A DNA stretch of 34,711 nucleotides, taken from contig JAKSNQ010000015.1 in the NCBI GenBank assembly GCA_024399615.1, positions 1 to 34,711 of the forward strand. Direction: 5' to 3'. The stretch comes from Paludibacteraceae bacterium. GTDB lineage: Bacteria; Bacteroidota; Bacteroidia; Bacteroidales; Paludibacteraceae. Each line of letters begins with the position of its first letter. Positions within the stretch are counted from its first letter, which is position 1. This document shows, in pieces, positions 245-12,510 of the stretch. Below the pieces are notes generated by a model. That model did not search any database. It saw only the letters and a program-made list of their open reading frames with translations, and had not been told where the DNA came from. The translations under genes were made by a program, and so were the position numbers.

Positions 245-1351
245 TTAATCCGGGAATTCCATGAGGTATGCCTTGATAAATTCATCGATATCTCCATCCA
301 TCACAGCCCCCACGTTGGATGTTTGGTAGTTGGTTCGATGGTCTTTTACTCGTCGATCATCGAAAACGTATGAGCGTATCTGCGAACCCCATTCGATTTT
401 CTTCTTTCCCGCTTCTACTTTTGCCTGTGCCTGACGCCGCTTCTCCAATTCAAGCTCGTATAATTGTGAGCGTAAGTGACGCAATGCATTTTCTCGGTTT
501 TTCGGTTGGTCACGTGTCTCTGTATTTTCAATTACGATTTCATCTGCCAAACCCGTAAGTGGATTGGTAAATTTGTAGTGGAGACGTACGCCGGACTCTA
601 CTTTATTGACGTTCTGTCCACCTGCACCGGAAGAGCGGAATGTGTCCCAACTGAGATTAGCCGGATTGACTTCGATTTCGATGGTGTCATCGATGAGAGG
701 TACCACAAATACGCTGGAGAAACTGGTCATACGTTTACCTTGTGCATTGTATGGACTGACGCGAACGAGGCGATGTACACCATTTTCTGACTTAAGATAA
801 CCATATGCCATGTCGCCTTCTACCGTAAACGTTACGGTCTTGATTCCAGCCTCATCTCCTTCTTGCAGGTTGGTGATGGTCGTTTTGTAGCCATGTTTCT
901 CGCAATATCGTTGATACATACGCATGAGTTGTTCTGCCCAATCTTGTGCTTCGGTACCTCCGGCACCGGCTACAATCTTTAGTACTGCGGGCATTTGATC
1001 CTCCTCATGCGAAAGCATGTTCTTCATCTCGAGTGCTTCCACTTCGACCAGTGCTGTTCCGTAAGCTGCGTCCATATCCTCTTCGGTGCAAATTTCTTCG
1101 CGGTAGTATTCCAGCGATAGTTCCAGTTCTTCAACAGCTTTACGCACACCCTCGTAACCCTCAATCCATGATTTTATTTGCTTGACCTTACGCATCTGTG
1201 CTTCGGCAGCTTTGGCATCGTCCCAGAATCCGGGGGCTTGGGTATGCAGTTCTTCCTCCTCCAGTTGGATTCGTTTTTCATCTATCGCCAGATAGGCTTT
1301 CAGTTTCTCTGCGCGATCTTGTACGTCTTTTAGTTGTTCGATAGTTATCAT
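245..1351 (-). CDS. prfB: Peptide chain release factor 2 (RF2), without programmed frameshift
   Basis: RF2 recognises UGA and UAA stop codons on the ribosome and triggers peptide release. The 368-residue length fits the family. The peptidyl-hydrolysis GGQ motif is at residues 244-246 (SSGAGGQNVNK). The stop-codon recognition tripeptide, SPF in E. coli, reads SPY here (199-201), a variant I recall from Bacteroidota RF2. The gene is one continuous frame. At the place where many prfB genes carry the CTT-TGA-C frameshift site, codons 21-23 read CTG GCG ATA, giving Tyr-Leu-Ala-Ile instead of Tyr-Leu-Asp, so no +1 shift is needed. The ATG overlaps the stop of the upstream pectate lyase gene by 4 nt (ATGA), which suggests translational coupling. 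Confidence 0.97.
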   Translation of the reverse strand: MITIEQLKDVQDRAEKLKAYLAIDEKRIQLEEEELHTQAPGFWDDAKAAEAQMRKVKQIKSWIEGYEGVRKAVEELELSLEYYREEICTEEDMDAAYGTALVEVEALEMKNMLSHEEDQMPAVLKIVAGAGGTEAQDWAEQLMRMYQRYCEKHGYKTTITNLQEGDEAGIKTVTFTVEGDMAYGYLKSENGVHRLVRVSPYNAQGKRMTSFSSVFVVPLIDDTIEIEVNPANLSWDTFRSSGAGGQNVNKVESGVRLHYKFTNPLTGLADEIVIENTETRDQPKNRENALRHLRSQLYELELEKRRQAQAKVEAGKKKIEWGSQIRSYVFDDRRVKDHRTNYQTSNVGAVMDGDIDEFIKAYLMEFPD

Positions 1352-3537
1352 AATGCTAAATGTGTTATATTTCTTCCTAACAAATCATATAGTTGTCCGC
1401 AACGCTCGATGATGACCTGTTGCTTGAGCATGTATTTTCGAGTGTTTGGAACTATTTCGTTTGCCTCTATACTCGTTTGGTGTTCAGGCACTTCACAACC
1501 CAAAACATAATAGATGGCGTTCTCGATTAGTTGTAATCCATCTTGAGTGAGATAGGCCGTCGAGTATTCGCTGGTACCCAACATGACCATTGGAGCCTCA
1601 GAGCTTCCTGTTATAGCAACGGATGATGCCGTAGGCTGACCGACAGGGGATGCCAGATTGATAAATGTCGGCGCGCTACCATCCCATTGTGAGATTGCTG
1701 TCACCGCATTCTCGTTGCAACGCGTGAAGAGGTTTATCTGGTTGTTGGTCAACGTGATATGGCGAAAGAGTGGGTGATTGGTATCCGACACGCTGATACT
1801 CAAATCGCTGGTGTTGATGGCTGTTCCCCAACCCCATACGCTGGGCTTGAAAAGCCATGGTTTGAGTACAACCATAGGTTTAGCGTAGTTTTTCAACGCA
1901 GGAAAAGCGGCTGCTCCTGACGAGGGTTTAGGACCGATGACGATGGCATCATACTGCGAGAAGTCCTGACCTGCTACAGTCGCATTCACTATGTGAATCT
2001 GTATGTCCTCCGATTCGCGCAACCATGTAAGCATCAGGTTATCTTCGCTCGAATTTGGAACTGTGACAAAAGCCACCTGATAGCGTGCAGAGTCAATCGG
2101 CTCTTCTTCCGGTTCGGTAGGCGTGTTGCCCGGTTCGGCCGGGTGATACTCACCATCTTGCTCAAAGCACCCCATCTCAGGTGCTGCGTCGCAGTAGGCC
2201 AGTCCCACATTTACGCCGGCGTTAATCATACGACTGCCGGACGACAGGTGCAGCAGTGTCCCCGATGGATTCCATAACATCAACGAACCATCTGCAGCAC
2301 GTGGCGCCAAAATCTGTGTTGTGTCAAGTGACTGAAAATCAGTACCGGAACAGGATATTCCTGCTGTGTTCCATGAGTTATGATTATTTTGCATCACTAC
2401 CTGTGCTACCTGTGCATCGCCACTGTTTCCCTGATACGATACATTGTTTTGCAGGTAGAGAGTTCCGCCGTTCGTATTGAAGAATCCGAAGTTCTGTCCA
2501 TTTAGGTAACCGGTGTTGTTGTAGATGCGCATTACACCGTAGTTGTTGTTTTGATCAAATCCCTTCACCGTATTGGCTACGGATAAACAATGGTGCAGCA
2601 GTACGTCGTTGTTCGTGTAATTACCGCCTATTTTGAAGCCGTTACCATTGCCGAAATTGTAGAAGTGCTCTAGGTCAAAGGTCATGTATAGTGTGCGACG
2701 ATTGTTATTTTTCTTATCCACATCGTAACTGATTTCTTTACCCGAAACGAATTGATCAAAAAAGTTCTTGTCGGTTTGATAACGAGCATGATTGCGCATG
2801 TCGTAGGTGGCCGGCCCATTGTGATAGCAGACGCAGTTCTCGATTACCATCTCTCCGCCATTGGTGACACGCTGATAAAAATCCCATCCATCGTCCGAGT
2901 TGTTCCATGCTCGACAGCCGATATATGTGTTTGGGGCCCCAGTGAACTGCTTGTCGGCAAAACCATCAGCGTTACCACCATAGTCGGCCCCCGTGAAGGT
3001 GAGGTCGGTACCATCGGTGTTTCCGTAGTCGAAATTGTCGTGACTATCGCAGTTGAGAATGGTGTTGTTGCCTCCATTTTTCATCTGACAACCTGTATCG
3101 GCTGAACCATAGATATCGAGTTGTTCAAATAGGCAATACGATCCCTCGTTGTATAGGTTATTCTTGCCCGAATAGCGTAGCGCAAAGCGATGCAGATGCA
3201 CATATTGGCAGTTCTTATCCAGCTGCAACCCGCGTGTGCCATAACTGACGTTGCGGAAGTCCAATATGGCATATTCCCCGGGGAATGAACCGATATAGAT
3301 GCGGCTGTTTGGAGTTCCGGCTTTACCATTGATAGCGGTCTTGGGCAGGTCGTATTGTCCGCCTAATAAATAGAGCGTATCACCCGGTTGACTGATCAAA
3401 TTGATGCCATCTCTGAGTGAGCATGGCGAGTTATAGGTTAAGCCGTTTCCGTTTCCCGTAGGAGATGCGAAATAGGTCGTTGCGGCCGCGCTTAGTGCTA
3501 TTAACCACGAAATGAGTATGGATAGTAATTTTTTCAT
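1348..3537 (-). CDS. Secreted PL9-family pectate lyase with C-terminal amidotransferase-like domain and sorting tail
   Basis: Predicted extracellular polygalacturonate lyase of 729 residues. A Sec signal peptide covers about residues 1-19 (cleavage near SAAA-TTYF). A right-handed beta-helix follows (about 20-460). Its calcium ligands would be Asp191, Asp215, Asp216 and Asp219, and the spacing (24, 1, 3) equals that of Asp209/233/234/237 in Dickeya Pel9A. The catalytic base is probably Lys302 in GNGNGFKIGG. About 47 extra residues lie between the last Asp and this Lys compared with Pel9A. After a Pro/Glu-rich linker (465-482), residues 485-690 look like a Rossmann or class-I glutamine-amidotransferase-like domain without an obvious catalytic Cys; this part is inference. 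The last about 27 residues match the tail of the CotH-phosphatase protein at 5611-8202. It lies 9 bp after the desulfidase gene and overlaps prfB by 4 nt. Confidence 0.88.
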   Translation of the reverse strand: MKKLLSILISWLIALSAAATTYFASPTGNGNGLTYNSPCSLRDGINLISQPGDTLYLLGGQYDLPKTAINGKAGTPNSRIYIGSFPGEYAILDFRNVSYGTRGLQLDKNCQYVHLHRFALRYSGKNNLYNEGSYCLFEQLDIYGSADTGCQMKNGGNNTILNCDSHDNFDYGNTDGTDLTFTGADYGGNADGFADKQFTGAPNTYIGCRAWNNSDDGWDFYQRVTNGGEMVIENCVCYHNGPATYDMRNHARYQTDKNFFDQFVSGKEISYDVDKKNNNRRTLYMTFDLEHFYNFGNGNGFKIGGNYTNNDVLLHHCLSVANTVKGFDQNNNYGVMRIYNNTGYLNGQNFGFFNTNGGTLYLQNNVSYQGNSGDAQVAQVVMQNNHNSWNTAGISCSGTDFQSLDTTQILAPRAADGSLMLWNPSGTLLHLSSGSRMINAGVNVGLAYCDAAPEMGCFEQDGEYHPAEPGNTPTEPEEEPIDSARYQVAFVTVPNSSEDNLMLTWLRESEDIQIHIVNATVAGQDFSQYDAIVIGPKPSSGAAAFPALKNYAKPMVVLKPWLFKPSVWGWGTAINTSDLSISVSDTNHPLFRHITLTNNQINLFTRCNENAVTAISQWDGSAPTFINLASPVGQPTASSVAITGSSEAPMVMLGTSEYSTAYLTQDGLQLIENAIYYVLGCEVPEHQTSIEANEIVPNTRKYMLKQQVIIERCGQLYDLLGRNITHLAL

Positions 3538-3546
3538 ATGTGTGAT

Positions 3547-4860
3547 TTATTGCTTGTTTGCCATAATTTGTACGATGAGGTCATCTGTCTCCTGCATGCC
3601 CTGGTGACCTATCTGTGTAAGGTTGTGGATGGTACGATCGATATCTTCCTCCACAATTCCTTCATCGGCTTGCGCATACGAGTGCTGTATGGCCAACGAT
3701 GCTGATAGCACAGCTGTTGCCACGCCCGACGTCACCTTTAGCGAACAGCCAGGCTTAGCTCCATCGCATATCATGCCCGATATGTTGGCAATCATGTTCT
3801 TGATGGCATATGTTAGTTCGTCGTAACCGCCACCCATCAGATAGGTGATACCTACGGCAGAACCGGTCGATGCTACCACGCATCCGCATAGTGCGGAGAG
3901 ACGCCCCAAAGACTGTTTGATGTATATCTCGGTGAGGTTTGATAAAGTAAGTGCGCGCAGCACTTGTTCCTCGTCACAGTTATGCTCGAGGGCATAGAGG
4001 TAGACGGGCACCGAGCAGGATATTCCCTGATTGCCCGATCCAGAATTGGACATGACCGTCACCATTGCACCTGACATACGTGCATCGCACGCACCAGATG
4101 TGTAGGCCAATATCTTGGTAAAGAGTGTGTTCCCAAACACAGTATCCATTTTTCCCGAGTGCAGCATTCTACCCAAACCATGTCCATAACTGCCCATGAA
4201 TGACCGTTCGGCTGCTGCCATGTTCATCTTCGCACCATCCATCAGAAAACGAACCTCATCCGCTTCAATATTCATCGCAAAATCATACACTTCGTTCAGC
4301 GACGAGATGGAGTAAAGGTCTTGTTCCATATACTCGGTCTGCGTCTGTTGCTGTCCATATGCTGATTTGGTCTCTGCCGTAGTCGCTTCATCTGTATCTT
4401 CCACAAAATGTGTATGTTCGCCTTGGATAGTGGCGCTGGCAGTCATACCTTGAGCTACTACCACGGCATGAATATAAAGGACATCCGGTGCGTTGTTGTC
4501 CACATGGATATGGGGTAATATCCGGAGCATATAAGCTTTTGCCTGCTCCACTGCTTCAGCATTTGTGTCGCGCAATAAATCCAATTTCAATTCACTTCGA
4601 CCTATGACTGCACCCAGCGCGATAGCTATGGGAAGTCCTGTCATTCCTGTGCCCGGTATACCCACTGCAAAAGCATTCTTATAGATGTTGCGGCTTAAGT
4701 CTACATGGATGCTGTCGGGTAGCGCATGAGAATCACCGATGGTCTGACGAAGGCGTTCGCAGGCTTTGGCTACACATAGTGATACCGCTACCGGTTCGGT
4801 ACAACCGGTGGCCGGAATGACTTCGTGATGAAGCAGGTTGAGTAGTTTGTTTTTATTCAT
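3547..4860 (-). CDS. L-cysteine desulfidase / UPF0597-family protein (CyuA-like)
   Basis: A 437-residue cytoplasmic protein of the UPF0597 / serine dehydratase alpha-like family. Characterised relatives (archaeal L-cysteine desulfidase, enterobacterial CyuA) use an oxygen-sensitive [4Fe-4S] cluster to split L-cysteine into pyruvate, ammonia and sulfide. Family signatures are clear: ATGCTEPVAV at the N-terminus (Cys20), SGNQGISCSVPV in the middle, then ALCGCVVASTGSAVGITYLMGGG and MICDGAKPGCSLKVTSG toward the C-terminus. These conserved cysteines are the likely cluster ligands. No serine dehydratase beta subunit or cysteine transporter is adjacent. It starts 7 bp after the GT2 gene stop and is followed at 9 bp by the pectate lyase, so it is probably co-transcribed without an obvious pathway link. 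Whether it acts on cysteine or another beta-substituted amino acid cannot be read from the sequence. Confidence 0.88.
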   Translation of the reverse strand: MNKNKLLNLLHHEVIPATGCTEPVAVSLCVAKACERLRQTIGDSHALPDSIHVDLSRNIYKNAFAVGIPGTGMTGLPIAIALGAVIGRSELKLDLLRDTNAEAVEQAKAYMLRILPHIHVDNNAPDVLYIHAVVVAQGMTASATIQGEHTHFVEDTDEATTAETKSAYGQQQTQTEYMEQDLYSISSLNEVYDFAMNIEADEVRFLMDGAKMNMAAAERSFMGSYGHGLGRMLHSGKMDTVFGNTLFTKILAYTSGACDARMSGAMVTVMSNSGSGNQGISCSVPVYLYALEHNCDEEQVLRALTLSNLTEIYIKQSLGRLSALCGCVVASTGSAVGITYLMGGGYDELTYAIKNMIANISGMICDGAKPGCSLKVTSGVATAVLSASLAIQHSYAQADEGIVEEDIDRTIHNLTQIGHQGMQETDDLIVQIMANKQ

Positions 4861-5610: not shown

Positions 5611-8202
5611 TTATTTACTGTTGATTCCAAGTATGGAGTAGCGTTGTCCATTGCGCTCGATGAACATTTGTCCGTTCCGTATCACCTTGCTCGTCGTAAT
5701 CTTGGTCTTATCTGATAGAGCCTCTTGAGTTGTAGGAGTATTGGTTTCATTGAGTCGTGCGACGAAAGCATTGATTTCTTCGTGCGTGAGAGTGCTGCTC
5801 GAAACGATATAGTCGGTCATGGCCCCTTGCAGGTCGCCAATGTTATCAGGGGCTTCACCCAACATCTGTGTCAGCGTGTAACGAATGAGACCGCGGTGGC
5901 GATACAACTGATAGCGCATGAGCGAAGTGGCTTCATAGTCCTGCGCTATTTCCTCCCACGATGCACCACACAAGGCTGCTATTACAGCCGAAAATGATCC
6001 AGTACGATCTGCTCCCAGTGAACAATGTATTTGAAATGGAACGTCGTGACTTGGGTCGCATACGAATCGGATAATTTCTTCCATCCAGTCCCCATAGTGA
6101 CCATGATCTAAGAACCATAGTGTGTTCTGATAATTAGGGAAATAGTCCAATGATTGACCTACGATTAAGATATGCTCATCGTCGATAATCGTCTGGTAAT
6201 AATCCGGTATCTGCACCACGAAAGTGGAGTCTCCGCAAGGCAAAACAACACCGTTGGCGTTCGGCTGATAACCACTTAGGCATATCGCAGATGAAATGCC
6301 GACACGTTCGGCACATCGAGTCACGTACTGAACACGAGCCGCAGCCGTTTCGTCTCGTGTGATGGGGTAGTATGGATGAAAACTGCGGTACAGGTGTTGC
6401 GTGCCCGGTACGCGGCGGAAATTGGCAAAACGCATCTGTGCTTCCTCGTCGCCCTCCAATTGCCAGTCTGCCAGTCCTGCATACTCCCATCGGCGTTCAA
6501 TACGTTGTCCCAGTTCGTTGATATCGTCGCCTGGACGCATCAGCATCAGGCCACCATCGGTTAGGTTCAGACGTGAATCGACTAACGAATCGATGGGGAA
6601 CGGGTCGATGGTGGGTGGGTCTGAATAGAAAACGCGGAAATAGACATTGGGTTGACCATCATCAGATGGACGCTCCAACTTCAAAAAAGAGAGAGTCGTG
6701 TAGAAGCAACTATCTGACGAGTAATAGGACATCCGATAATCCTCTACGGGCGCCATCCATGCTGTTATTGAACCATAGGCATATACGCGACGAATGAGCG
6801 AGTCACGGATTAAATCAAACCGGTCTGGACTGAAAATCAGTGTGATAGTGCTGTCTTCTCGGTTCATGCGCTGGCATCGCGCTTTCTCCTCCGGTGTGAA
6901 GTATTCGGCCGTGGTTGTTATTCCTTCTACAGGATAAGTCAAAGGTGTGTAGTGGTATACGCTATCCAGAAAAGCAATTCGTTTGACCAGCCAATTGTGG
7001 ATGTATGCTCGTTCAGAAGGAATGTCCAGAGCAACGTCCACACCGTCCCATATCTCTTGTTCCACACGATCCATGCCCGTGGTCTCAAACAGGTTGAAAT
7101 AGTTGCCTACGATACTATCCAGATGCTGTACGGTAAAAATATGTTGGCGCAGGTATGCATAGCGGCTGTTGAGTGAGTCGCAGAAGGCGTTGTTGCGCAT
7201 AAACTTACTCACCATTCGCTCGCTAAACTCATAGTTGGTTGTTTCCTCTTTGCCGTTATACTGACGGCCCCAAGAGTGATCGAGGTCCCAAAGGGTAATC
7301 AGCGCCTTGTTTGACAAGGTATGATCATAGTAGGACCAAAAGAAATTCTTGCCCGTGTTATCACGTGCGGACAACATGTTGACGAATAGCACATAATCGA
7401 TATACACCGGCATGTCGATGTAGTCGTTGATGGTTGGGAATAGGTTATTGTACGAATTGGTTCGAAAGAACTCCATGAATTGCAATAGTGGTTGCCATGT
7501 GATGGAGTCACCCTCATCTAATTCGGGGTAACTGACTTCCAGTCCGCTCCAGCTTATCATTGTATCGGTCGGGAACGGTCGAATATAGTATGTGAAAGGA
7601 TAGACTGCTTCCCATGTGTCGGACTTGTAGAGCAAGCCTCTGATGCCACCCTTCTTGGCATTGTATTTCTTCAGTTTTAACTGTTTGCGGTCAATTCGCT
7701 CAGAGAGATGATAGATACCCATATGGCGGTCGTTGATGTATACGTCCACCATCTGACCATGATACCCATTTACGCAATTAGGCTCCAATTCCTGATACCA
7801 GGGCTTACGTGACATTTCCAGCCACAAGTCCATCGCGGCGCGGTTACGCATGCGGGCTTTGTCGCGTGCCATAGCATCCAGCACCCAATAGTTATCTTTG
7901 CGCATGCCCAAAATGGTGGTATCCAGTTTGTTGCCCTGCGAATCGATGAGTTTGATTCCCAGCGTCGGTTTTTCGCAATATAGCGATGTGCCGCCACGAC
8001 GACGTATCTGTATCTGATAATGCATGGTGTCTGGCGTGGCAATCGTCAGTTGGCCGGGGAAAAAGGTTTCATGGCTGAGGGTGTCGTATTCGATACGGAG
8101 TATAGGTAATTGGACAGGCTCGGTTTGTGCACATAGCCATGCGAATGACTGTAGAGTCATCAGCATCAAAATCATTAGTATGTGCTTTGTTATTGTTTGC
8201 AT
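5611..8202 (-). CDS. Secreted CotH-like kinase fused to a CX5R tyrosine phosphatase, with sorting tail
   Basis: An 863-residue exported protein that appears to join opposing activities. A signal peptide spans about 1-25 (cleavage near LCA-QTEP; not a lipobox). Residues about 35-415 are a CotH-family atypical protein kinase, with a lysine strand near 79-86 (PTLGIKLI), the RKDNYWVLDAMARDKARMRN block (101-120), VDVYINDRHMGIYHLSERI (152-170), and the metal-binding WDLDHSWGR (305-313; Asp306, Asp308). Residues about 455-540 look like an E-set/Ig-like beta domain (VYAYGSITAW). Residues about 590-800 resemble Y_phosphatase2/3 enzymes: LYRSFHP (604-610), and a P-loop HCSLGADRTGS with Cys727 and Arg733 (CX5R). 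The tail at 838-863 matches that of the pectate lyase at 1348. Flanked by two glycosyltransferase genes, it probably acts at the cell surface or outside the cell. Activity and substrates are inference. Confidence 0.85.
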   Translation of the reverse strand: MQTITKHILMILMLMTLQSFAWLCAQTEPVQLPILRIEYDTLSHETFFPGQLTIATPDTMHYQIQIRRRGGTSLYCEKPTLGIKLIDSQGNKLDTTILGMRKDNYWVLDAMARDKARMRNRAAMDLWLEMSRKPWYQELEPNCVNGYHGQMVDVYINDRHMGIYHLSERIDRKQLKLKKYNAKKGGIRGLLYKSDTWEAVYPFTYYIRPFPTDTMISWSGLEVSYPELDEGDSITWQPLLQFMEFFRTNSYNNLFPTINDYIDMPVYIDYVLFVNMLSARDNTGKNFFWSYYDHTLSNKALITLWDLDHSWGRQYNGKEETTNYEFSERMVSKFMRNNAFCDSLNSRYAYLRQHIFTVQHLDSIVGNYFNLFETTGMDRVEQEIWDGVDVALDIPSERAYIHNWLVKRIAFLDSVYHYTPLTYPVEGITTTAEYFTPEEKARCQRMNREDSTITLIFSPDRFDLIRDSLIRRVYAYGSITAWMAPVEDYRMSYYSSDSCFYTTLSFLKLERPSDDGQPNVYFRVFYSDPPTIDPFPIDSLVDSRLNLTDGGLMLMRPGDDINELGQRIERRWEYAGLADWQLEGDEEAQMRFANFRRVPGTQHLYRSFHPYYPITRDETAAARVQYVTRCAERVGISSAICLSGYQPNANGVVLPCGDSTFVVQIPDYYQTIIDDEHILIVGQSLDYFPNYQNTLWFLDHGHYGDWMEEIIRFVCDPSHDVPFQIHCSLGADRTGSFSAVIAALCGASWEEIAQDYEATSLMRYQLYRHRGLIRYTLTQMLGEAPDNIGDLQGAMTDYIVSSSTLTHEEINAFVARLNETNTPTTQEALSDKTKITTSKVIRNGQMFIERNGQRYSILGINSK

Positions 8203-8265: not shown

Positions 8266-9351
8266 TTATAATTGACGCATAATATCTTCTAGTTGGTGAG
8301 CTTGCTTTTCTCTGGAAAAGAAGTCCTTGTTCTCCACCTGTTGGTGTGTGAAACCATTCTTTTTCCATTCATTTTGTTTCTCTGCCACAAACCGGAGTAT
8401 CTCTTCGAAATCACCGGACGCAATACCTGCATGAGTTTGCTCGATGACATCGGCCAATGTACCATTATCTGATGGATAGCAGAGAATAGGTTTCTCGCAC
8501 CCTAATGCCTCGTAAAACTTGGTCGTCATCATGCCTTTTGCACTAGGATCGGTTAGCACGATCATAATACTGCTTCGACGAATCTCCTCGCCAACTTCGG
8601 TGATGGCAATAGGATTTTCGGTGGGGGTGTGTAAGTTCAGTTCTACCCCAGGCATGCTCCTCAGCAATTGAAACAGCGAATCTGGGTGCTGAAATTCATA
8701 TATTTTACCTATGTATGATACCAAGAAACGCTCGCTGCGTTTCCCCTCGAAATAGAACTGTTCCGGGTCGTAACCATTATAAATGAGGTGGACGTTGTGA
8801 TGGAACTGTTTTAGAAAATCGACATGCCATGGGCTGACCGTTGTGATGGCGTTTGCCTGACGCAGTACAACGTTGCGTCGTCGTATGTTGACCGCACGAT
8901 ACCATTTCCTAAATGGTCTGGCCCACCAGTTGCGATGTGACTGATACTGTGCATTGGGAACCTGTTCGTCCAGGTCGCGGATGTCGACAAGTAGAGGCAA
9001 ATTTTTCTCTTTTGCTACCTCAAGTGCGGCGCGAAGTGGGAAGGTGGAGAAAGTGGTGCAAAAGATCAAATCATACGTTTTCTCTACCGCGTATTGTCTC
9101 ACTTTCCGAGAGAAGTAGCGATTTTTCCAGTCGGTCAATAGAGACCATGCGGACTTGATTGCCCAATCCCACTTTCCCGAGTAAATGTCTATCTCGGTGA
9201 TGGGGTAGGCATGGTCGAAAATTATCGGTTGAAATCGCTCTGTGACCACTTCTACATGATGGCCATGCCGCGTCAGGTAGTCGCAGAAATAGCGCACACG
9301 AGGTCCGTAAGACGGTTGGCCAAATGGATCAGTTAATACGAGCAGATTCAT
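8266..9351 (-). CDS. GT4-like (GT-B fold) glycosyltransferase
   Basis: A 361-residue glycosyltransferase with the GT-B two-domain layout. The N-terminal acceptor domain opens MNLLVLTDPFGQPSYGPRVRYFCDYLTRHGHHVEVVT, with a Gly/Pro-rich loop and the typical search for a cell-surface acceptor chain. The C-terminal donor domain contains VSYIGKIYEFQHPDSLFQLL and the late motif TTKFYEALGCEKPILCYPSDNGTLADVIEQTHAG, which matches the KxxEyla...pii.....g...e pattern of family 4 retaining enzymes (Glu in KFYEALG). No signal peptide is present, so it acts on the cytoplasmic face. It starts 36 bp after the deacetylase gene and is followed by the CotH-phosphatase gene. Together with the GT2 enzyme it suggests assembly of a surface glycan or glycoprotein. 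Donor sugar is unknown. Confidence 0.87.
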   Translation of the reverse strand: MNLLVLTDPFGQPSYGPRVRYFCDYLTRHGHHVEVVTERFQPIIFDHAYPITEIDIYSGKWDWAIKSAWSLLTDWKNRYFSRKVRQYAVEKTYDLIFCTTFSTFPLRAALEVAKEKNLPLLVDIRDLDEQVPNAQYQSHRNWWARPFRKWYRAVNIRRRNVVLRQANAITTVSPWHVDFLKQFHHNVHLIYNGYDPEQFYFEGKRSERFLVSYIGKIYEFQHPDSLFQLLRSMPGVELNLHTPTENPIAITEVGEEIRRSSIMIVLTDPSAKGMMTTKFYEALGCEKPILCYPSDNGTLADVIEQTHAGIASGDFEEILRFVAEKQNEWKKNGFTHQQVENKDFFSREKQAHQLEDIMRQL

Positions 9352-9387: not shown

Positions 9388-10647
9388 TCAGTTGGTACGG
9401 GCAGATGATACGAGGTACTGAATCAAGTCTTGATACAGCGAGCGATGGTAGCCTTCGTTCTCGATGACGTTGCTGTTGTGCCACAATAATACCAGTTCTC
9501 CGCCATGCTGACGTACTTTATCGACCAATTGTTGACATGTGTAGTAGGCCTCTTCCTCTTCGCTGATGTTCATATAGTTGCTATTGCTCAACGTACAATC
9601 CATGATGCTAAGTGGGTGCAACGTCAATTCTGTGAGCTGCATCGTTTGGGGATTGATCCACCGTACAGGACGCGTGGTTCCCAAACGAAAACCGATATGG
9701 TCTGCCCAACCTATGGTGTAATCGTCGAGGATGCCGGCATCTGCCATAGCCTGTAGCGCGGAGATACCTGTGATGCGAAGATAATGGTTGCGATGCTGGT
9801 GGATTGAAACGTGAGTAGCCTGTTCCAATTGTTGGCGCTCGGCCTTATAACTTAACTCATCGCTGGCATGATAACTGCCGTGCAGACCAATGCTTGCTCC
9901 TGTGTCGCGCAAGTGAGTCAATAAAGTTTGACAATCCCGTCCGGATAGTTTGTATTGTGGATAATCCAATCCTTGTCCATGTGTGGCTTTTAGGAAATAG
10001 ATTACATTTGCGTCTTTGACTTGGCTGTCTTGATTGTGCAGCCAATGGAACGTGTATGCTGAATCTTGTTCCAGATTCGAGAGTGATGCCCATGCTTGCC
10101 GCGCTTGTCCACGACGTATCCCACCCAGGAAGCCGCGCAAGTGACGGTAGTGAGCAATCGTGTCCACATCGTGGGTAAGAACGATATTTGAGAATCGGGG
10201 TTCAGGCAACGAGGCCTCCACCAATTTGGTACACAAACGGCTGTACTCGTCTAGCACAGGTATCGTACGCAGGTTCTGTCGGCCTAAGGGCGAAGATGCA
10301 GATGCTATACGACCATGTTCATCGTGTTGATTGTTGAGGCAGAATTCACCGGCTAATGATATGCAGAAGAGAGTGTTATAGAAGATGTCTTCTCTAATGA
10401 CCCATGTGCCGCCCATCTTCTCCCCAAATTCGTCGGTGAACTCGCCCTGTTTCTCGGCTTGGGCGGGGCTGCTCAAGTCGGGCTCATGCCAATCGCGACG
10501 TTCACCTGTGAGCACATTTCGTCCCGGCACAATGACCAACTTGTAGTTCGACCATTCGCTTTCATTGGCAGTGTAACCTATACGGTCGGCAGCGGCGAGG
10601 TTGCCGTACACGAGAAACAACTTGATGTAATCGATTATTTCGTCCAT
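9388..10647 (-). CDS. NodB-like polysaccharide deacetylase family protein
   Basis: A 419-residue protein with a C-terminal NodB-type carbohydrate esterase domain (about 150-410). Its motifs are VLTHDVDT (Asp160 and Asp162 replacing the TFDDG motif), LHGSYHASD (His256 and His260 as the metal-binding HxxxH-type pair), HQHRNHYLR (283-291) and a late LLWHN histidine. The first 150 residues are a separate N-terminal region, common in Bacteroidota deacetylases found near capsule and glycan loci, and may bind the polymer. No signal peptide is seen, so a cytoplasmic or membrane-associated role is likely. It lies 18 bp after the ABC-F gene and directly before the GT4 gene. Expected chemistry is N-deacetylation of an acetylated amino sugar; the substrate is unknown and the altered first motif leaves activity uncertain. 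Confidence 0.83.
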   Translation of the reverse strand: MDEIIDYIKLFLVYGNLAAADRIGYTANESEWSNYKLVIVPGRNVLTGERRDWHEPDLSSPAQAEKQGEFTDEFGEKMGGTWVIREDIFYNTLFCISLAGEFCLNNQHDEHGRIASASSPLGRQNLRTIPVLDEYSRLCTKLVEASLPEPRFSNIVLTHDVDTIAHYRHLRGFLGGIRRGQARQAWASLSNLEQDSAYTFHWLHNQDSQVKDANVIYFLKATHGQGLDYPQYKLSGRDCQTLLTHLRDTGASIGLHGSYHASDELSYKAERQQLEQATHVSIHQHRNHYLRITGISALQAMADAGILDDYTIGWADHIGFRLGTTRPVRWINPQTMQLTELTLHPLSIMDCTLSNSNYMNISEEEEAYYTCQQLVDKVRQHGGELVLLWHNSNVIENEGYHRSLYQDLIQYLVSSARTN

Positions 10648-10665
10648 GATTTTTAGAACACCCCT

Positions 10666-12510
10666 TTAACTCTTCAGTTCCTCTAATTGTTCGCAGAGCA
10701 GTTCCCATTCATACATTCGCTGCTCCAATTTATGTTTTAGGCTCTCATATTGAGCAAAATTCTCCTGTGTCTGATGTGCTACATCACCCATCTTTGCCTC
10801 CATCTCTGCTATTTGGGCCTCCAGTTTTTCTACGTCAGACTCAGCTTCGTCCACAGCTTTTTGTGCCTTGCGAAGCTCGGCCGCTTTGGCTTTTTGCGCT
10901 GCATAATCGAGCGCACCGGCAGATACATTGTTGGACGAACCGTTGTTTTTGTTGTTATCACGTACATTGGGCGAACCACCACGCAGCGCGTTCTCTATAG
11001 CTCGATTGTTGTCCATTGTACCTTCAACTTCGGCTTTTTTCTTTCGTAACCAATCATAGATGCCACCGAGGTGCTCCCGAACTTGACCGCCACCAAATTC
11101 ATACACTTTGTCCACCAAACCATTCAAGAAATCGCGGTCGTGGCTAACACAGATGACGGTTCCGTCAAAATCAATTAGTGCCTCTTTGAGCACATCTTTT
11201 GAGCGCATGTCCAAATGATTGGTTGGCTCATCAAGGATGAGTAGGTTGACGGGTTCCAACAGCAGTCTGATCATGGCCAATCGGCTACGTTCACCACCAC
11301 TTAGTACCTTGACTTTTTTCTCGCTGGCTTCACCACCGAACATAAATGCCCCCAATATATCCTTGATGCGTGTACGAATGTCCCCCACTGCTATGCGGTC
11401 AATGGTATCAAACACGCTCACTTCGCCATCCAGTAAGCTCGCTTGGTTTTGCGCAAAGTAACCGATTTTGACATTATGTCCTATTTTGAGCGTTCCTGTT
11501 GCATCCGTAATCTCGCTCATTATACACTTGACCAACGTTGATTTACCTTCGCCGTTTTTGCCCACAAATGCCACTTTCTCGCCGCGTTTGATTGTGAAGG
11601 TTACGTGGTCAAACACCGTGTGCTGACCATAGTCTTTGCGAAGATCCTCAATGATGACAGGATAATCACCGCTGCGAAGCGCTGGGGCAAATTTCAATCT
11701 CAAGCGCGAGTTATCCTCTATGTCTACCTCTAACCGTTCCAGTTTGTTCAACTGCTTGATTCGACTTTGCACTTGCACAGACTTGGTCGCTTTGTATCGG
11801 AAACGCTCGATGAAATCCTCGGTTTCCTGAATCATCTTCTGCTGATTTTCGTAGGCACGAACTTGTTGCTCATGGCGCTCACGTCTGAGTTCGACAAACT
11901 GTGAATACGATACGTTGTAGTCATATATGCGTCCGAGGCTGATTTCTATGGTTCGATTGGTCACATTGTCAATAAAAGCGCGGTCGTGACTAACCAGTAG
12001 CACGGCACTACCTGACTGTAGCAACCATTGTTCCAACCATTGTATTGATTCGATGTCCAAGTGGTTGGTTGGCTCATCGAGAAGTAGCACATCGGGTTTA
12101 CGAAGCAAGAGCTTTGCCAGTTCTACTCGCATGCGCCAACCGCCCGAAAACTCGGAACATTGGCGTTGAAAATCGCTACGCAGGAAACCTAAACCCAACA
12201 GCACTTTTTCCATTTGTCCCATCGACTTGGCATCCTCTTTGTCTCGTACTTTCTCTACTTCCTCTATCAGTGTCGTACCATCGGTATGAATCATGTGTTG
12301 AGGAAGGTAACCGATGGTCATCTCCTTATCTTTGCTGATATGGCCGCTGGTGGGTTCTTCCTCACCGGCTATCATGCGTAAGAGTGTCGTTTTGCCGGCG
12401 CCATTTTTACCCACCAAAGCGATGCGATCACGCTTGTTAATCAGAAACGTGATACCATTGAGAATAGGTTTGGCCGAATATTCTTTGGTTATGTTCTCTA
12501 TCGAAATCAT
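10666..12510 (-). CDS. ABC-F family ATPase (ribosome-associated, Uup/YheS-like)
   Basis: A 614-residue protein with two ABC ATPase domains and no membrane segments. ABC-F proteins bind the ribosomal E site and tune translation. Walker A motifs are GKNGAGKTT (residues 34-42) and GKNGEGKST. Signature motifs are FSGGWRMRVEL and LSGGERSRLAM. Walker B motifs are LLLDEPTNHLD and LILDEPTNHLD. The two domains are joined by a charged helical linker (YENQQKMIQETEDFIERFRYKATKSVQ), the presumed tRNA-contacting arm. A long C-terminal coiled coil (about 545-610) resembles Uup/YheS types. I chose the ATG at 12510 (MISIENITKEY); the frame is open 25 codons further upstream, but that stretch overlaps uvrA and looks like antisense-like filler. 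It lies 14 bp after uvrA. No sign that it is an antibiotic-resistance type. Confidence 0.93.
   Translation of the reverse strand: MISIENITKEYSAKPILNGITFLINKRDRIALVGKNGAGKTTLLRMIAGEEEPTSGHISKDKEMTIGYLPQHMIHTDGTTLIEEVEKVRDKEDAKSMGQMEKVLLGLGFLRSDFQRQCSEFSGGWRMRVELAKLLLRKPDVLLLDEPTNHLDIESIQWLEQWLLQSGSAVLLVSHDRAFIDNVTNRTIEISLGRIYDYNVSYSQFVELRRERHEQQVRAYENQQKMIQETEDFIERFRYKATKSVQVQSRIKQLNKLERLEVDIEDNSRLRLKFAPALRSGDYPVIIEDLRKDYGQHTVFDHVTFTIKRGEKVAFVGKNGEGKSTLVKCIMSEITDATGTLKIGHNVKIGYFAQNQASLLDGEVSVFDTIDRIAVGDIRTRIKDILGAFMFGGEASEKKVKVLSGGERSRLAMIRLLLEPVNLLILDEPTNHLDMRSKDVLKEALIDFDGTVICVSHDRDFLNGLVDKVYEFGGGQVREHLGGIYDWLRKKKAEVEGTMDNNRAIENALRGGSPNVRDNNKNNGSSNNVSAGALDYAAQKAKAAELRKAQKAVDEAESDVEKLEAQIAEMEAKMGDVAHQTQENFAQYESLKHKLEQRMYEWELLCEQLEELKS

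What the first reader, a model, noticed from the sequence alone, without database searches (positions are those of the whole stretch)
5611..8202. Secreted fusion of a CotH-type kinase and a CX5R tyrosine phosphatase
Seen: one signal-peptide protein carries CotH landmarks (WDLDHSWGR at 305-313, plus the upstream RKDNYWVLD and YINDRHMGIYHLSERI blocks) and, about 415 residues later, a phosphatase P-loop HCSLGADRTGS (Cys727, Arg733). Known: CotH proteins are atypical extracellular protein kinases; the P-loop resembles Y_phosphatase2/3 enzymes. Inference: a writer and eraser of phosphate joined in one exported chain, between two glycosyltransferase genes, could form a reversible modification system for surface proteins or glycans.
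Basis: partly seen in the sequence, partly recalled or inferred. Interest (0 to 1): 0.72.

Follow-up and report, generated by a model that had tools for sequence, protein, structure and literature searches.

The report
Exported kinase-like and phosphatase fusion protein
A gut bacterium carries one apparently exported protein that joins a kinase-like domain to a phosphatase domain; relatives keep the two as separate, sometimes neighbouring genes, which suggests, without proving, that they add and remove phosphate on the same cell-surface target.

Summary
Minus-strand ORF 5611-8202 (863 aa) has a signal-peptide-like start, a CotH domain (PF08757, 132 bits), a carbohydrate-binding-like E-set region, a Y_phosphatase3 domain (PF13350, 47 bits; Cys727/Arg733) and a short C-terminal tail. 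The tail recurs at the C-terminus of at least 20 other ORFs of this genome, which also has the T9SS translocon SprA. Catalytic residues of both halves are intact; D281 and D306 align with B. subtilis CotH D228 and D251. The organism is probably an uncultured Paludibacteraceae member, because congeners carry that label. No other fusion was found. In the genus the halves are separate, exported-looking proteins. Where both occur they are sometimes neighbours: one polysaccharide operon in G056, convergent in G107, and 10 bp apart in a Treponema. The fusion lacks the internal sorting signals of the separate proteins and sits in a VimE-GT4-GT2-PelN-prfB operon that lacks it in five relatives examined. 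Best reading: a surface kinase/phosphatase pair acting on one class of substrate, most likely surface glycans or glycoproteins. Activity, donor and substrate are untested. The fusion rests on one 76%-complete MAG.

The parts
5611..8202 (-). Fusion gene: signal-peptide-like start, CotH domain, E-set, Y_phosphatase3 domain, sorting tail (863 aa)
8128..8202 (-). Residues 1-25: signal-peptide-like N-terminus (Lys/His, hydrophobic run, then AQ)
   Evidence: read by eye; no signal-peptide predictor was available
6970..8007 (-). Residues 66-411: CotH kinase domain
   Evidence: PF08757 132 bits; profile of fusion and relatives matches solved CotH 5jd9/5jda at E 2.2e-10
7360..7362 (-). Asp281, equivalent of B. 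subtilis CotH D228
   Evidence: alignment; D228Q inactive (passage); D in 24 of 25 distinct CotH rows, gap in 1
7285..7287 (-). Asp306, equivalent of B. subtilis CotH D251
   Evidence: alignment; D251A inactive (passage); D in 24 of 25 distinct CotH rows, gap in 1
6883..6969 (-). Residues 412-440: junction, with neither the CotH sorting tail nor the phosphatase signal peptide of the separate relatives
   Evidence: alignment; no tail match here
6433..6870 (-). About residues 445-590: E-set domain resembling AMPK/CBM48-type glycan-binding modules
   Evidence: sub-threshold AMPK1_CBM, CBM53 and CBM_48 matches in some relatives, none in the fusion itself; PDB matches at E<=10 mostly AMPK beta; weak
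5758..6423 (-). Residues 594-815: Y_phosphatase3 domain (NFR...LYRS start, P-loop, DY and YRH motifs)
   Evidence: PF13350 47 bits; motifs conserved in the family
5998..6027 (-). P-loop HCSLGADRTG, residues 726-735 (Cys727, Arg733)
   Evidence: HCxxGxDRTG in 70 of 72 distinct family ORFs; the other 2 are a split-gene piece and an ORF matched only over its N-terminal domain
5614..5691 (-). C-terminal 26 aa: shared sorting tail, probably T9SS
   Evidence: 28 further matches in own genome at E<=1 besides itself and the pectate-lyase-like gene, both of which were in the query; 20 of 20 examined end at a stop codon; SprA 2659 bits
4868..5584 (-). GT2 glycosyltransferase, 26 bp from the fusion
8266..9351 (-). 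GT4-type glycosyltransferase (VimF-like by position only)
   Evidence: PF13439 49.7 bits
9388..10647 (-). VimE-like deacetylase
   Evidence: NF053580 310 bits, below its equivalog cut-off of 440; matched in 166 of 178 genomes of the genus
1348..3537 (-). Pectate-lyase-like protein with the same sorting tail, partner in the conserved operon

Best explanation
The gene encodes a surface-exported two-enzyme protein. An N-terminal CotH-type atypical kinase is fused, through a carbohydrate-binding-like E-set, to a Cys-dependent Y_phosphatase3 phosphatase, and a C-terminal tail sends the chain out, probably through the type IX system. Shown by sequence: both domains with intact catalytic residues; separate, exported-looking homologues of each half in the genus, most with the same kind of tail; physical linkage of the two families in other genomes; absence at the junction of the internal sorting signals; and the presence of the fusion in a glycosyltransferase/VimE-like operon that lacks it in five relatives. 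Inferred: the two halves act on the same class of extracellular substrate, one adding and the other removing phosphate, and that substrate is most likely the surface glycan made next door or glycoproteins anchored to it.
For: Domains: CotH 132 bits and Y_phosphatase3 47 bits. The CotH-half profile matches solved CotH at E 2.2e-10 with D281 and D306 on the equivalents of D228/D251; both are Asp in 24 of 25 distinct CotH rows, gap in 1. P-loop HCxxGxDRTG in 70 of 72 distinct phosphatase-family ORFs. Export: tail found in own genome at E<=1 in 30 places, 28 besides the two that were in the query; 20 of 20 examined end at the stop; SprA present. Linkage: G056 operon GT - phosphatase - flippase - CotH - GT2 with overlapping ends; G107 convergent overlapping pair; Treponema RUG314 pair 10 bp apart. 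Over 26 gene pairs, 0.075 expected within 3 kb and 4 seen; without the fusion 0.071 expected and 3 seen, Poisson 6e-5. The CotH halves of G000, G056 and G107 fall in one clade of five (100/99). VimE-like genes lie in the same cluster in G000, G056 and G161. The site is empty in 5 of 5 relatives examined.
Against: The fusion is seen once, in a 76%-complete MAG. By the A3 profile 67 of 70 phosphatase loci have no CotH in the DNA held, up to 10 kb each side and less at contig ends (distant CotH may be missed). Genome-level co-occurrence is not enriched: 4 genomes have both where about 2.8 are expected (18 with close CotH, 28 with phosphatase, of 178; counted). In 9 CotH loci of other genus members, judged by eye, I saw no phosphatase or glycan cluster beside the gene. 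The phosphatase half sits on a long branch with a G030 protein, not with the CotH-linked phosphatases. The E-set is below every CBM cut-off and hhalign gave 4.7%. An ATP source outside the cell is not obvious. No activity, structure or substrate data exist. The linked cases in the genus may be related by descent and the 3-kb limit was set afterwards, so the Poisson figure is only indicative.
Confidence: 0.45

Rival explanations
1. Both domains are active but not antagonists: the phosphatase strips phosphate from diet or microbial polymers, such as phosphorylated starch or other esters, for uptake, and the CotH half phosphorylates something else. The fusion only co-localises them.
For: 67 of 70 phosphatase loci have no CotH nearby by the A3 profile; the records are largely herbivore-gut MAGs by title. 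An E-set with weak similarity to starch/glycogen-binding modules precedes the phosphatase.
Against: Adjacency with CotH in three other genomes of two phyla, and a glycan-biosynthesis rather than uptake context in G000, G056 and G161.
Confidence: 0.25
2. The CotH half is not a protein or glycan kinase here but a binding domain, pseudokinase or another nucleotidyl transferase, and the chain is in effect a phosphatase with a targeting module.
For: Some fungal CotH proteins act as ligands of host receptors (PMC9973265 passages). ATP outside an anaerobic Gram-negative cell is doubtful (reasoning).
Against: The two Asp residues needed for activity in B. subtilis CotH are kept in 24 of 25 distinct rows, gap in 1, as are the RG and W-D motifs; binding alone would not require this.
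Confidence: 0.18
3. The protein acts outward, on tyrosine-phosphorylated or other proteins of the host animal or other gut microbes.
For: P. gingivalis releases a tyrosine phosphatase that acts in host cells (PMC8172045 passages); the protein looks exported.
Against: That enzyme is of a different (LMW) family and lacks the T9SS C-terminal domain. The gene here sits inside a glycan operon.
Confidence: 0.09
4. Assembly or gene-calling artefact joining two neighbouring genes.
For: One genome only, a MAG; the two genes are near neighbours in G056 and G107, so a deletion in assembly could fuse them.
Against: No stop in 863 codons and no N in the window; similar GC in both halves, 0.469 and 0.493; the sorting tail of the first gene and the signal peptide of the second are both absent; both halves are only about 28-48% identical to the relatives aligned, so no local mis-join of a known pair.
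Confidence: 0.03

Closest known systems
CotH spore-coat kinases (PF08757; B. subtilis CotH; solved CotH 5jd9/5jda)
   Same: Domain above cut-off; both residues needed for activity conserved.
   Different: Exported-looking with a sorting tail, and fused to a phosphatase. For B. [quoted passage not shown]
Y_phosphatase3 family (PF13350; PtpB 1ywf filed here from recall) and 8dhi
   Same: Domain above cut-off; HCx2GxDRTG P-loop; the family profile matches 8dhi at 1.6e-5 and, weakly, PtpB 1ywf at 0.07.
   Different: Preceded by an E-set and followed by a sorting tail; N-terminal CotH domain.
CotH genes beside pel exopolysaccharide operons (streptococci, clostridia)
   Same: CotH linked to polysaccharide biosynthesis (PMC7112168 passages).
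   Different: There the partners named are a polyphosphate polymerase, DUF4956 and DUF4832, not a phosphatase, and no fusion is described in the passages read.
Wbp/Vim linking-sugar pathway of Porphyromonas and Tannerella
   Same: VimE-like deacetylase with a neighbouring GT; T9SS-type cargo tails.
   Different: The window VimE scores below the equivalog cut-off; no CotH or phosphatase appeared in the passages read of PMC7468200 and PMC13086638.
Glucan phosphatases with carbohydrate-binding modules (laforin, SEX4; architecture recalled)
   Same: A carbohydrate-binding-like E-set next to a Cys-dependent phosphatase.
   Different: Other phosphatase family; the E-set match is below threshold.

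Membership tests
CotH kinase family (PF08757) | Pfam profile above gathering score | tested here: met
   132.2 bits against 23.8, residues 66-411
CotH kinase family (PF08757) | Catalytic Asp pair (B. subtilis D228, D251) | tested here: met
   D281 and D306 aligned with the equivalent residues of 5jd9; D in 24 of 25 distinct rows, gap in 1
CotH kinase family (PF08757) | CotH fold | not tested
CotH kinase family (PF08757) | ATP-dependent phosphotransfer | not testable with these tools
   needs assay
Y_phosphatase3 (PF13350) | Pfam profile above gathering score | tested here: met
   46.9 bits against 22.2; 31 of 34 members of alignment A4 match at E<=1, the other 3 being CotH-only rows
Y_phosphatase3 (PF13350) | HCX5R P-loop | tested here: met
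   HCSLGADRTG 726-735; 70 of 72 family ORFs
Y_phosphatase3 (PF13350) | Phosphatase activity | not testable with these tools
   needs assay
T9SS cargo | Signal peptide | tested here: inconclusive
   typical by eye; no predictor used
T9SS cargo | Por_Secre_tail model (PF18962 / TIGR04183) | tested here: not met
   no hit in the fusion at E<=1; one family member 19.4 bits, below 27
T9SS cargo | C-terminal tail shared by many proteins of a genome with the T9SS translocon | tested here: met
   30 matches at E<=1, two of them in the query; 20 of 20 examined end at a stop; SprA 2659 bits
VimE (NF053580), neighbour gene | Equivalog cut-off 440 bits | tested here: not met
   309.9 bits: VimE-like only
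Glucan phosphatase (laforin/SEX4 type) | CBM20/CBM48 module above cut-off | tested here: not met
   no CBM hit in the fusion; relatives' AMPK1_CBM up to 22.2 bits against 26.8, CBM_48 16.7 against 22.4
Glucan phosphatase (laforin/SEX4 type) | DSPc-type catalytic domain | tested here: not met
   DSPc absent in the fusion and below its cut-off of 33.5 in the relatives tabled
PTP-like phytase (PF14566) | Pfam profile | tested here: not met
   no hit in the fusion; 13.4 bits against 27 in one relative

The most novel reading that the evidence does not exclude
A dedicated extracellular phosphate cycle for surface glycans in gut Bacteroidales, with a parallel gene pair in a Treponema: CotH kinases write phosphate on the glycan (or its protein anchor), E-set-guided Y_phosphatase3 enzymes erase it, and in this genome the pair has become one surface-exported protein built into a VimE-type glycan operon. 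It would be a bacterial, extracellular counterpart of starch or glycogen phosphorylation control.
Probability: 0.22. Interest if true: 0.87.

Novelty: new variant of a known kind. Interest (0 to 1): 0.6.

Why it matters
In the passages read on B. subtilis CotH, its phosphorylation is thought possibly irreversible for want of a known phosphatase (PMC7821199), and CotH genes turn up beside polysaccharide operons with only a proposed role (PMC7112168). A natural CotH-phosphatase fusion, backed by neighbouring gene pairs in two phyla, names a candidate eraser for CotH kinases and points to surface glycans as a possible substrate. Either half can be expressed and tested alone or together. Searches of the held PMC library, judged from their listings (in one search only 15 of 59 papers were listed), showed no paper describing such a fusion or pair; most subscription papers are not held.

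Tried and rejected
Other copies of the fusion: none seen in 178 genus genomes, 101 relatives, 344 order, 395 class and 395 phylum genomes, 70 phosphatase loci of genome contigs, or 72,556 plasmid and 50,697 phage records. A viral-contig scan with the phosphatase half found no relative. These draws overlap, each includes the window genome where that applies, and only the best few first-look candidates per genome were scored, so misses are possible. The first genome-contig scan, with the single fusion protein, found nothing.

Host tyrosine phosphatase effector: kept as a weak rival. Phytase and classical glucan phosphatase membership: rejected on profile scores. The E-set against a two-sequence CBM48-like profile gave only 4.7% probability by hhalign, E 0.0085, so glycan binding stays a lead. 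A co-occurrence signal between the families across genomes was looked for and is absent (4 genomes against about 2.8 expected, counted); only the physical linkage stands out. I first took a G056 gene (L053 14545-16167) for a polymerase; Pfam shows it is a sulfatase-superfamily protein; my note carries the older guess. Mis-assembly was considered; composition and junction argue against it, but raw reads were not available. The repeats found around the gene are short and do not suggest a recent insertion mechanism.

Rows dropped: one search used 70 distinct phosphatase rows with the P-loop and at least 330 aa of the stretch taken; one search used 24 CotH rows of at least 300 aa, and one search used 25 of at least 250 aa; the per-genome counts were typed, and matches covering only the N-terminal domain or only the P-loop region were left out.
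Full report
What is there. The ORF 5611-8202 lies on the minus strand and encodes 863 residues. The quoted motifs are at the stated positions. Pfam assigns CotH to 66-411 (132.2 bits) and Y_phosphatase3 to 699-814 (46.9 bits), both well over their cut-offs. A profile from 13 CotH-half sequences, the fusion's included, matches solved CotH (5jd9/5jda) at E 2.2e-10. In that alignment D281 and D306 fall on two Asp residues that I count 23 apart, the spacing of D228 and D251 of B. subtilis CotH, whose changes inactivate it (PMC7821199, passages only); in the fusion they are 25 apart. D281 and D306 are Asp in 24 of 25 distinct CotH rows, the other being a gap; D308 is Asp in 21, Asn in 3 and a gap in 1. 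The phosphatase P-loop HCxxGxDRTG is present in 70 of 72 distinct family ORFs; the other two are one piece of a split gene and a large ORF matched only over its N-terminal domain.

Between the halves. Residues of about 445-590 form a region conserved in the 16 sequences aligned. Of 34 members scanned with Pfam, AMPK1_CBM matches 6, CBM53 4 and CBM_48 1, none of them the fusion itself; the scores I looked at, in 10 relatives, are all below the curated cut-offs. A profile of 16 such regions finds 20 PDB sequences at E<=10, of which 13 are AMPK beta subunits, 2 an alpha-amylase, 1 a glucoamylase and 1 a pullulanase, and 3 unrelated. The best has E 6.6e-5 for the whole sequence but only 0.008 for its best stretch, and the AMPK matches lie at E 0.3-2. 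Hhalign against a small CBM48-like pair gave 4.7%. So the region is probably an E-set of the glycan-binding type; binding is untested.

Export. The last 26 residues belong to a tail profile found in 30 places of this genome at E<=1; two of these, the fusion and the pectate-lyase-like gene, were in the query. I fetched 20 of the other 28; in all 20 the match ends at the stop codon. The T9SS translocon SprA is present at 2659 bits. The standard Por_Secre_tail models do not hit the fusion, so T9SS export is a strong inference, not a model-based call. The N-terminus looks like a signal peptide by eye.

Relatives. The window genome (G000) is a 76%-complete MAG of 84 contigs. Contigs of several genus members coincide in length with public contigs labelled Paludibacteraceae or Bacteroidales, so the organism is probably an uncultured Paludibacteraceae bacterium; this is an inference. 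In 178 genomes of the genus only G000 showed the fusion. From, 18 genomes carry a close CotH (E below 1e-90) and 28 a phosphatase matched over the catalytic region (31 genes); 4 have both. The two kinds are separate, exported-looking proteins. In the alignment of 17 sequences the CotH relatives and most phosphatases end in the same kind of tail, while the L065, L053 and L050 phosphatases end in divergent tails. In the fusion the CotH tail and the phosphatase signal peptide are absent and the outer signals are kept.

Linkage. In G056 (L053) the order is glycosyltransferase, phosphatase, flippase-type Polysacc_synt protein, CotH, GT2, all on one strand with overlapping ends, followed by convergent genes including an SdaA-like gene, a sulfatase-superfamily protein, GT2, a radical SAM protein, GT4 and a VimE-like gene. 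In G161 (L065) the phosphatase stands in the same kind of cluster without CotH. In G107 (L050) phosphatase and CotH are convergent and overlap, and no VimE- or GT-like relative of the window genes was matched in the stretches read around them. In Treponema RUG314 (L121) a phosphatase gene with a lipoprotein-like start (by eye) ends 10 bp before a CotH gene scoring 152 bits. G056, G107 (as L093, L112) and L121 were the only 3 of 70 phosphatase loci with CotH in the DNA held, up to 10 kb each side, by a profile that may miss distant CotH. Over 26 phosphatase-CotH gene pairs in genomes with both (10 of the genus, weak CotH included, and 7 of 13 Treponema), 0.075 are expected within 3 kb and 4 are seen; leaving out the fusion, 0.071 and 3, Poisson 6e-5. 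The genomes of one genus are not independent, and the 3-kb distance was chosen afterwards. The CotH halves of G000, G056 and G107 fall in one clade of five with G188 and G128 (100/99). The phosphatase half of the fusion groups with a G030 protein on a long branch, so the two halves do not show one clear shared history.

Insertion site. I read the VimE locus in the five genomes whose VimE is most like the window's. ABCF, VimE-like, GT4, GT2, pectate-lyase-like, prfB stand in a row in L194, L195 and L196; L197 shows the VimE-GT4-GT2-PelN part before its contig ends, and L193 has another, unscanned gene in place of GT2. None of the 5 has the fusion or the SdaA-like gene here. The window has the fusion between GT4 and GT2 and the SdaA-like gene between GT2 and the pectate-lyase-like gene, with gaps of 26 and 63 bp around the fusion. 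GC is similar in both halves (0.469, 0.493; window 0.483). VimE-like genes are found in 166 of 178 genomes. In Porphyromonas the Wbp/Vim pathway makes the sugar that links T9SS cargo to LPS, and vimF lies next to vimE and vimA (PMC7468200 and PMC13086638, passages). The window protein is VimE-like only, 310 bits against a cut-off of 440.

Mechanism. I read the protein as a surface-exported kinase and phosphatase working on one class of substrate. The domains, tail and linkage are shown; activity, donor and shared substrate are inferred. A glycan or glycoprotein substrate is favoured by the operon context, by the glycan-binding-like E-set, by CotH genes beside pel operons (PMC7112168, passages), and by the fact that atypical secretory kinases can phosphorylate sugars (Fam20B, POMK; PMC5865150 and PMC5142810, start of abstract seen). 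The O-polysaccharide of P. gingivalis carries phosphoethanolamine (PMC13086638 passage), so phosphate on such glycans has precedent. Against it: most family members examined of either kind are not near the other, ATP outside the cell is a problem, and the fusion has been seen once.

Verdict. The parts are known; the joined architecture and the CotH-phosphatase pairing were not found described in the listings of the held library. New variant of a known kind, interest 0.6.

Noticed in passing
L125:7487-10924: Treponema ORF joins an MFS transporter (MFS_1_like 107 bits) in frame to the same phosphatase family (PF13350 43.5 bits), 1145 aa.
   Followed up: no
L133:5167-5505 and L138:11309-11623: Small stand-alone CBM48-like proteins next to Treponema phosphatases; the L133 one scores CBM_48 32.9 bits, above cut-off, and the L138 one is 92% identical to it.
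   Followed up: partly
L064, L068 and similar; rows: The roughly 150-aa N-terminal domain of the longer phosphatases recurs in large proteins of the genus (frames of 775 to 3281 aa, besides short contig-end pieces).
   Followed up: no
L053:14545-16167: Sulfatase-superfamily protein (PF00884 145 bits) inside the G056 glycan cluster with phosphatase and CotH; such proteins include phosphoethanolamine transferases (recalled).
   Followed up: no
L086:9557-10108 and 10370-11335: Phosphatase gene split into two ORFs in one horse-faeces MAG; left as found.
   Followed up: no
L126:9959-11095 and L131:9914-11020: These Treponema members of the phosphatase family (378 and 368 aa) start without an evident signal peptide by eye, so cytoplasmic forms may exist.
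   Followed up: no
L069 (G083): Three CotH-type proteins in a row (838, 1170 and 996 aa) in another Bacteroidales family.
   Followed up: no
window 3547-4860: SdaA-like gene (weak L-serine ammonia-lyase match) sits in this operon in G000 and in the G056 and G161 clusters, but not at this place in the 5 relatives examined.
   Followed up: partly
window 1348-3537: Pectate-lyase-like protein with the same sorting tail; a relative stands near the VimE-GT4 genes in 5 of 5 relatives examined.
   Followed up: partly
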